Notes under the pieces: model-generated
What the model was told of the DNA's origin: nothing
The model's database searches: none
What the model saw: only the letters and a program-made list of their open reading frames with translations
Assembly (NCBI GenBank): GCA_944327085.1
Contig: CALVGG010000003.1
Span: 1 to 64,000, forward strand
Direction: 5' to 3'
Length of the DNA stretch: 64,000 bases
From: an uncultured Elusimicrobiales bacterium
Lineage (GTDB): Bacteria > Elusimicrobiota > Elusimicrobia > Elusimicrobiales > Elusimicrobiaceae
Position numbers and translations under genes: made by a program
Shown: positions 10,314-11,611 of the stretch, piece after piece
Position numbering within the stretch: position 1 is the first letter of the stretch
Layout of the letters: each line of letters begins with the position of its first letter

Positions 10314-10345
10314 AATGTTATTTTACCATATTGCACGGCGCTTAT

Positions 10346-10375
10346 AAAAAGGGCCTGCCCTTACGGGCAGACCCC
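10346..10375 (-). terminator. Terminator of the secreted Cys-rich gene
   Basis: GGGTCTGCCC / GGGCAGGCCC stem with GTAA tetraloop at 10351-10374, followed on the minus strand by TTTTTATAAG. Confidence 0.85.
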
Positions 10376-10420: not shown

Positions 10421-10861
10421 TTATTGACAGGTTAACAAGTTCGTTGTTCCACAACATTCCACTGTATCGGGGCTGTAAGTCCTGCCAGTCATACCATAAC
10501 TCATAATATAACATTGTTCCCCTTTAGTAGAGCACGAAGCCCCTGCGTATACTCCATTAGCACATTTGCGATACCCCTTAATTACCAAAGATATATCAGC
10601 AGGGATAGCATAGTCTACCGTAGCACATTGGCCACCACCAAATGTAATGTTTCCTTTACCATCAGTTGTGCAATTCATATATCCTGGATAACACCAAGAG
10701 CCATAACAACCATTATGCAACGAAGAAGCCTGCCAAGTAAAATGGCTTGTAGCATTACACGTTCTGGAGCTTTCTACGCATTTGCATTGGCTTTGGCTCC
10801 AAGTGTAGTTAATTTGCCCCGTCTGCCCGCTGGGGCAGGGTTGAGACGGACAAGATTGCAC
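10421..10861 (-). CDS. Cys-rich C-terminal part of a secreted protein (in frame after a TGA)
   Basis: About 146 residues from the first possible start (a GTG without SD), but the same frame is open back to the TGA at 10901-10903 that ends the upstream gene; 13 more codons (TGGITPVDPPQNV) join the two. The segment is rich in Cys (about 14), Gly, Ser and Tyr, with CPSQPCPSGQTG and ECCGTTN, and looks like an exported disulfide-bonded domain. With no start site of its own it probably is, or was, the C-terminal domain of the upstream protein, reached by TGA readthrough or lost by a nonsense mutation. No known family recognised. Confidence 0.55.
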   Translation of the reverse strand: MQSCPSQPCPSGQTGQINYTWSQSQCKCVESSRTCNATSHFTWQASSLHNGCYGSWCYPGYMNCTTDGKGNITFGGGQCATVDYAIPADISLVIKGYRKCANGVYAGASCSTKGEQCYIMSYGMTGRTYSPDTVECCGTTNLLTCQ

Positions 10862-10900
10862 AACATTTTGCGGCGGATCAACCGGCGTTATACCGCCAGT

Positions 10901-11611
10901 TCATTTTAACACCAATATCTTTACGCTTTCCCCGCCCTTATCCGGGTGTTTTACCGTCCTGCGTGTTTCCCATGCCAAGGTTTTCGCGCCTACCCCATTC
11001 GTGCTGGGAAGCGGCACCCAGTTGCCGGCCAATCTTAACGGAGTAGAAGCGCTTAAATTACGGTAGGAATACGTCCCCACACCGGTAATATTTAATTTCC
11101 CTTTTACCGTAGCGTATACGCTTTCCAAACGCAAGCGGTTTGCATTGGTGGTAACTTGATTAATGCGGCTTGCCGGGTCACTATAACCGGCCGGCCCCTG
11201 AAACCGCGCCGCACCGCCGTTAAACTTTACATTTAAACTGCCCGGTGTGCTGGAAGTTACACAATTTTCCAAAGAGGAAAAACACGTGCCTTCAAAATCC
11301 AGCGTGGGCTGAGCGGGGAAAGTGGACAATACGTCAGAATCCGTTTTGCCTTTCCGCCCGTCCAATAAAGGAACATCATAAGCAAGCGCGCCCGAGTTAC
11401 TTTCATTAATGCTTACCGTTCCGCCGGAGCGCACCTGCATGGACTGCGCCGTCAAGCCCCCCTGAAATGTGGCCTTTTCGGACACTTTCAGCCTTTCATA
11501 CTGGCCTAAACGCGCAGGGTTAAAGTTAATGGTTTGGATGACTTCCGCACTTAAGGGTGCACAAGCCAACACAAACAACATCCCTGTCAATATTAAATGT
11601 TTCATATTCAC
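10901..11611 (-). CDS. Secreted protein of unknown function, N-terminal part
   Basis: 236 residues to the in-frame TGA. Signal peptide with AxA-like cleavage (MKHLILTGMLFVLACAPLSA; the Cys is a possible lipobox but lacks the usual context). The mature part has beta-strand-like Ser/Thr/Gly/Val repeats (LKVSEKATFQGG, MQVRSGGTVSINES) typical of surface or adhesin-type proteins, and one Cys pair (CFSSLENC). It ends KILVLK, then TGA, and the frame continues into a Cys-rich domain. Start: SD GGGAGGG eight bases before ATG at 11605 (second Met) or 11611. A promoter and a hairpin-bearing 5' UTR lie upstream. Family unknown. Confidence 0.7.
   Translation of the reverse strand: MNMKHLILTGMLFVLACAPLSAEVIQTINFNPARLGQYERLKVSEKATFQGGLTAQSMQVRSGGTVSINESNSGALAYDVPLLDGRKGKTDSDVLSTFPAQPTLDFEGTCFSSLENCVTSSTPGSLNVKFNGGAARFQGPAGYSDPASRINQVTTNANRLRLESVYATVKGKLNITGVGTYSYRNLSASTPLRLAGNWVPLPSTNGVGAKTLAWETRRTVKHPDKGGESVKILVLK

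What the first reader, a model, noticed from the sequence alone, without database searches (positions are those of the whole stretch)
10421..11611. One in-frame TGA splits a secreted Cys-rich gene, with a hairpin at the stop codon
The frame is open on both sides of TGA 10901-10903 (393 codons plus the stop otherwise), the downstream part lacks its own start, and the sequence right after TGA (AACTGGCG-GTATAA-CGCCGGTT) forms an 8-bp stem beginning inside the stop codon. Options: nonsense mutation, sequencing error, regulated readthrough, or a selenocysteine site. The loop is closer to the TGA than in known bacterial SECIS elements.
Basis: partly seen in the sequence, partly recalled or inferred. 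Interest (0 to 1): 0.6.

Follow-up and report, generated by a model that had tools for sequence, protein, structure and literature searches.

The report
Stop mutation shared by twin genes
A gut bacterium's secreted-protein gene is cut in two by a stop codon that its relatives lack, and the same cut stands in a second, sister gene of the same genome, which points to an ordinary mutation spread by gene copying rather than a special coding trick.

Summary
On the minus strand (start ATG 11605) 234 codons run to TGA 10903-10901, and the frame stays open for 159 more codons to TAA 10423-10421. The 8-bp stem is there. It is very unlikely to be a selenocysteine site: no tRNA-Sec, no UCA anticodon among 45 tRNAs, SelA in 0 of 41 genus genomes. 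Eight of eight readable copies in four relatives have a sense codon at the TGA column (glycine in seven, alanine in one), and TGA plus hairpin occur in 1 of 66 genus genomes. The key new fact: a second copy in this genome (contig C6) is 100% identical over 770 bp, TGA and hairpin included, yet has a different signal peptide and Cys-rich tail. Most likely a nonsense mutation arose at the stem/tail border and gene conversion put it in both paralogues, leaving secreted "stem-only" proteins like six tail-less family members. Both tails are still intact, so the stop is recent or slightly leaky. The surrounding family is more interesting than the TGA: genus-wide secreted proteins with homogenised stems and exchangeable Cys-rich tails, one of them swapped almost unchanged between species.

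The parts
10904..11605 (-). Stem ORF: signal peptide plus conserved stem domain, 234 codons from ATG, ending VKILVLK
   Evidence: in alignment A1 the stop stands directly behind the last conserved strand
11546..11605 (-). Signal peptide (MKHLILTGMLFVLACAPLSA), different from that of the second copy
   Evidence: Read by eye, no signal-peptide program was run; 5' part 59% identical to the second copy
10901..10903 (-). In-frame TGA; sense codon in 8 of 8 readable relative copies (7 Gly, 1 Ala)
10880..10901 (-). 8-bp hairpin with 6-nt loop, starting at the third base of the TGA; not conserved in relatives
10757..10900 (-). Linker and Cys-rich connector (TGGITPVDPP...CKCVESSRTC), open frame after the TGA
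10424..10756 (-). Variable Cys-rich tail, open frame; no match in the 65 other genus genomes searched at E <= 0.001
10421..10423 (-). TAA that ends the downstream frame
10345..10374 (-). Terminator-like inverted repeat with T-run behind the tail (read by eye, not scanned)
   Evidence: near-identical sequence behind the G005_A and G005_B copies
10779..11548 (-). 770-bp tract 100% identical to the second copy on contig C6 (inferred gene-conversion tract), TGA and hairpin inside

Best explanation
A nonsense mutation turned a sense codon (probably glycine) into TGA in one copy of a secreted stem-plus-tail gene, exactly at the border between the conserved stem and the variable Cys-rich tail. Gene conversion between the two paralogues, working over the shared stem, then put the same allele into both genes. 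Both genes now most likely make a secreted stem-only protein ending VKILVLK, like several tail-less members of the family, while both tails lie untranslated downstream as recently silenced cassettes. Shown: the TGA, its presence in two loci, the identical tract, the sense codon in relatives, homogenised stems within genomes, no sign of Sec machinery. Inferred: direction and recency of the mutation, gene conversion as the copying process, stability of the stem-only product.
For: Second copy on G000:C6 with a 770-bp identical tract including TGA and hairpin but a different signal peptide and tail. Eight of eight readable copies in four relatives have a sense codon there: glycine in G005 x3, G066 x2, G088 x2, alanine in G079. 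The TGA-hairpin string, up to 3 mismatches, is in 1 of 66 genus genomes, this one. Stems are homogenised within genomes: in the first half 97-100% identity between paralogues of one genome, 69-81% between species (one 125-base overlap 58%). Six of 29 family loci read end at the same place without a tail. No tRNA-Sec, no UCA anticodon among 45 tRNAs, SelA in 0 of 41 genus genomes. Two other TGA-ended ORFs of the window overlap the next gene, as for an ordinary stop.
Against: Neither tail has decayed: no further stop in 159 and 143 codons, tail dN/dS 0.14 between G000_C and G005_C (stem 0.10), and 10 tail changes on each of the G000 and G005 lines (distant outgroup G020). This fits a recent stop but would also fit readthrough. 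The homogenisation is not uniform: in the second stem half the two G066 copies are only 83% identical, no more than copies of different species (76-84%). No second strain of the species could be examined, so recency is not shown directly.
Confidence: 0.8

Rival explanations
1. Leaky or regulated readthrough: most ribosomes stop at the TGA, a few insert an amino acid and make the tailed protein, perhaps helped by the hairpin; both tails are thereby kept intact.
For: Both downstream frames intact; no sign of relaxed constraint in the C6 tail; the hairpin directly follows the stop in both copies.
Against: TGA plus hairpin in 1 of 66 genus genomes only; relatives have a sense codon and other folds. 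No tRNA with a UCA anticodon. Both copies share one tract, so their agreement counts as a single event, not independent conservation. A recent stop explains the intact tails equally well.
Confidence: 0.12
2. Sequencing or assembly error: the identical tract was collapsed during assembly and a wrong base call was written into both places.
For: A 770-bp exact repeat is hard for short reads; relatives' contigs break in this gene (G005:C10, G088 contigs). The read type of this assembly is unknown to me.
Against: Both copies lie inside contigs of 308 and 113 kb with unique flanks; the whole linker around the TGA differs from relatives, not one base only; a pooled consensus would rest on the reads of both copies (inference).
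Confidence: 0.06
3. Selenocysteine insertion at the UGA with a SECIS-like hairpin.
For: UGA followed by a stem-loop.
Against: The tRNA-Sec model's only match over the cut-off is tRNA-Ser(UGA). SelA in 0 of 41 genomes, the own one included. Relatives have glycine or alanine, not cysteine. SelB was not searched for.
Confidence: 0.01
4. The tail is a separate gene translated by re-initiation from GTG 10861.
For: An ORF of 146 aa from that GTG exists.
Against: No ribosome-binding site or signal peptide in front (by eye); the relatives' tails are parts of one secreted protein.
Confidence: 0.01

Closest known systems
Nonsense alleles homogenised between paralogues by gene conversion (pseudogenes in multigene families; recalled)
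   Same: One stop shared by paralogues inside an identical tract with different flanks
   Different: The stop lies at a domain border, so a complete stem domain may remain functional; the part behind it has not decayed
Surface-protein families with a constant N-terminal part and exchangeable C-terminal parts (PilV shufflons; polymorphic toxin tips; recalled, for shufflons also starts of abstracts)
   Same: Shared stem, variable tails, tails found on different stems and in different species
   Different: Recombinases and inverted cassettes were not looked for, nor immunity genes; tails are Cys-rich and of unknown function
Bacterial selenoprotein genes with a SECIS element (recalled)
   Same: In-frame UGA followed by a stem-loop
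   Different: No tRNA-Sec or SelA; glycine or alanine in relatives; hairpin not conserved

Membership tests
Nonsense allele spread by gene conversion | Sense codon at the site in relatives | tested here: met
   8 of 8 readable copies in four relatives
Nonsense allele spread by gene conversion | Identical tract in both paralogues with divergent flanks | tested here: met
   770 bp at 100%, signal-peptide and tail flanks different
Nonsense allele spread by gene conversion | Relaxed constraint or decay behind the stop (not expected if the stop is young) | tested here: not met
   Both tails open, no acceleration
Selenoprotein gene | tRNA-Sec (selC) and SelA in the genome | tested here: not met
   genome 95% complete; SelB not tested
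Selenoprotein gene | Cys or Sec at the site in homologues | tested here: not met
   Glycine in 7, alanine in 1 of 8
Programmed stop-codon readthrough | Stop and hairpin conserved across species | tested here: not met
   1 of 66 genus genomes; other folds in five relative linkers
Programmed stop-codon readthrough | Extended product made in cells | not testable with these tools
   Needs proteomics or a reporter assay
Shufflon-type variable C-terminus | Site-specific recombinase and inverted cassettes | not tested
   Not searched for

The most novel reading that the evidence does not exclude
The gene belongs to a genus-wide display system in which conserved secreted stems carry exchangeable Cys-rich tails that move by homologous recombination between loci, stem types and species; the TGA is a heritable tail-off state that gene conversion sets in all paralogues at once, with slight readthrough keeping the tails usable.
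Probability: 0.12. Interest if true: 0.6.

Novelty: new member of a known kind. Interest (0 to 1): 0.3.

Why it matters
It shows how gene conversion could put one stop codon in every copy of a surface-protein family at once, which looks like conservation and could mislead a search for recoding. The family itself, without a match over a cut-off in Pfam or NCBIfam or among PDB sequences in the searches made here, shows tail exchange between species of gut Elusimicrobiales and is a candidate for rapid surface variation.

Tried and rejected
Selenocysteine. The tRNA-Sec model's only match over its cut-off was tRNA-Ser(UGA), a false hit; 14 further tRNAs matched below it. Mobile palindrome: the hairpin occurs in this genome only in the two gene copies, up to 3 mismatches (the backwards control had one match). 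The TGA-hairpin string in viral contigs: 0 exact matches (that collection may leave out near records).

Family searches: Pfam and NCBIfam for the read-through protein gave 0 families up to E 1. Pfam for ten relatives gave one match of 13.5 bits against a cut-off of 27. PHROGs for five proteins gave one match at E 0.087. PDB sequences with the profile gave 0 up to E 0.1. AlphaFold models were poor (mean pLDDT 42.8 and 42.0), so the Foldseek list (best E 3.4) is meaningless; only residues of about 251-290, the Cys-rich connector, had block means of 73-87.

Papers: searches; I saw listings (capped) and the starts of abstracts and opened no paper. No listed title deals with this family.

Left out or failed: the eighth stretch (L096:800-850 +) was in the wrong place and is not used. 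One search stopped with an error after giving the 770-bp tract. One search read loci in the wrong orientation and was replaced.

Full report
The observation. The gene lies on the minus strand. From ATG 11605 (behind GGGAGG, by eye) 234 codons run to TGA 10903-10901; the frame then stays open for 159 codons to TAA 10423-10421. The hairpin AACUGGCG-GUAUAA-CGCCGGUU (10901-10880) begins at the third base of the TGA and folds at -13.6 kcal/mol in a 40-nt stretch (z -2.2; 5 of 200 shuffles as good) and -14.8 in a 51-nt stretch (z -1.5; 13 of 200). Such a stem follows 3 of 1000 TGA trinucleotides of the window, but it was picked after the fact.

A second copy. The own genome (G000, 1.668 Mb in 12 contigs, 95.5% complete) holds a second copy on contig C6. 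The two genes are identical over 770 bp, window 10779-11548, TGA and hairpin included. On either side they differ: another signal peptide and 5' region (59% identity), another Cys-rich tail, other neighbouring genes. In the C6 copy, too, the frame is open behind the TGA, for 143 codons. So the TGA is not an accident of one locus; but because the tract is identical it counts as one event, not two.

Relatives. Among 66 genus genomes, five, the own one included, have a stem match at E 1e-30 or better. Eight copies from the four others could be read at the site: G005 three, G066 two, G088 two, G079 one. All eight have a sense codon at the TGA column, glycine in seven and alanine in G079, and the frame runs on through the linker into a tail. 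Three of them are incomplete upstream: G005_A and one G088 copy are cut by contig ends, and the G088 copy at the def locus lacks part of the stem and changes frame there. A further G088 contig ends before the site. Five relative linkers were folded and form other hairpins or none; G066_C has one of similar strength (-12.7 kcal/mol, z -2.0) with a sense codon. Gly codons followed by Pro codons make such linkers self-complementary (inference). TGA plus hairpin, up to 3 mismatches, occur in 1 of 66 genus genomes.

No machinery for recoding was found. The tRNA-Sec model's only match over its cut-off is tRNA-Ser(UGA). All 45 tRNA matches were given an anticodon and none is UCA. SelA is missing from 41 of 41 genus genomes; of 14 control genomes E. 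coli and M. jannaschii rang. TGA ends 5 of 53 largely non-overlapping ORFs of 150 aa or more in the window, this gene included; not all 53 need be genes. SelB was not searched for.

What the stop does. In an alignment of 20 members the TGA stands directly behind the last conserved strand of the stem (14 of the 29 loci below, plus the window gene, its sister and four copies from the named genomes). Of 29 loci read, 19 continue into a tail (one of these reaches the end of the fetched stretch), six end within about 20 residues of this place (L008, L009, L017, L022, L023, L031), and four run into contig ends. A stem-only protein is therefore a normal form in the family, and the truncated products may work or at least be tolerated.

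Gene conversion. In the first half of the stem, paralogues of one genome are 97-100% identical (G000 100%, G066 99.4%, G005 97.2-98.7%), copies from different species 69-81% (one 125-base overlap 58%). In the second half it is 100% in G000 and 88-93% in G005, but 83% in G066, no more than between species (76-84%). The 5' region plus signal peptide instead fall into two types that cut across species: G000_A with G005_B and G066_A (80%), G000_C with G066_C and G088_C (82%) and G005_C (72%). Patchy homogenisation of the stem is thus usual in this clade and the natural way for one stop to reach both genes.

Age of the stop. Behind it nothing has decayed: no second stop in either tail, tail dN/dS 0.14 for the C6 copy against G005_C (stem 0.10; dS 1.6 and 0.88), and 10 changes on each line with the distant G020 tail as outgroup. 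This argues for a young stop, or for readthrough; the data cannot separate the two. I prefer the young stop, because TGA and hairpin occur in one genome only.

Tail exchange. This is the more unusual part. At the def locus the G088 tail and about 210 bp behind it are about 99% identical to G005 over some 660 bp (655 of 660); the four 60-base blocks before it are 72-83% identical, the seven after it 83-93%, later blocks lower. Yet from just behind the tail stop G088 is 97% identical to G066 over 1108 bases, and G066 carries a different tail. In codon terms the G005-G088 tail has dS 0.015 against about 0.97 in the 27 stem codons compared. A tail cassette has moved between species; caveat: all three are MAGs. 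Related tails also sit on a different stem family: the C6 tail type on G020:C12 (E 7e-15), the L020 tail type on L112 (41% over 129 aa). For L105 and G005_A the match (39% over 107 aa) covers the connector and only the start of the tail. The tail of the window gene itself matched none of the 65 other genus genomes at E <= 0.001.

Distribution and novelty. A stem match at E <= 0.001 was found in 34 of 61 genomes: 34 of 37 of the genus, 0 of 24 of another family in the order. No Pfam or NCBIfam match over a cut-off, no PHROGs match better than E 0.087, no PDB-sequence match; the fold models were too poor to use. Paper searches (listings only) showed nothing on this family. The split gene is an ordinary nonsense allele with an instructive twist; the stem-and-tail family deserves a look of its own.

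Noticed in passing
L096, L050, L047 (def locus of G088, G005, G066): A tail cassette plus about 210 bp of 3' flank is about 99% identical between G088 and G005, inside diverged surroundings, while G088 and the near relative G066 carry different tails: recent exchange between species.
   Followed up: partly
L105 and L109 (G000:C2), L125 (G020), L103, L104, L106, L107, L110-L113: Further secreted families with other stems carry similar Cys-rich connectors and tails; several lie at contig starts, as if their stems were repeats too.
   Followed up: partly
L052 (G088:C26, contig end), bases 1-420: The G088 copy at the def locus lacks part of the stem and changes frame there: a second broken copy in the clade, or a misassembly at a repeat.
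   Followed up: partly
window 1-64000: TAA ends 39 of 53 long ORFs; TAG/CTA is rare against its dinucleotides (0.60), TCG/CGA too (0.59).
   Followed up: no
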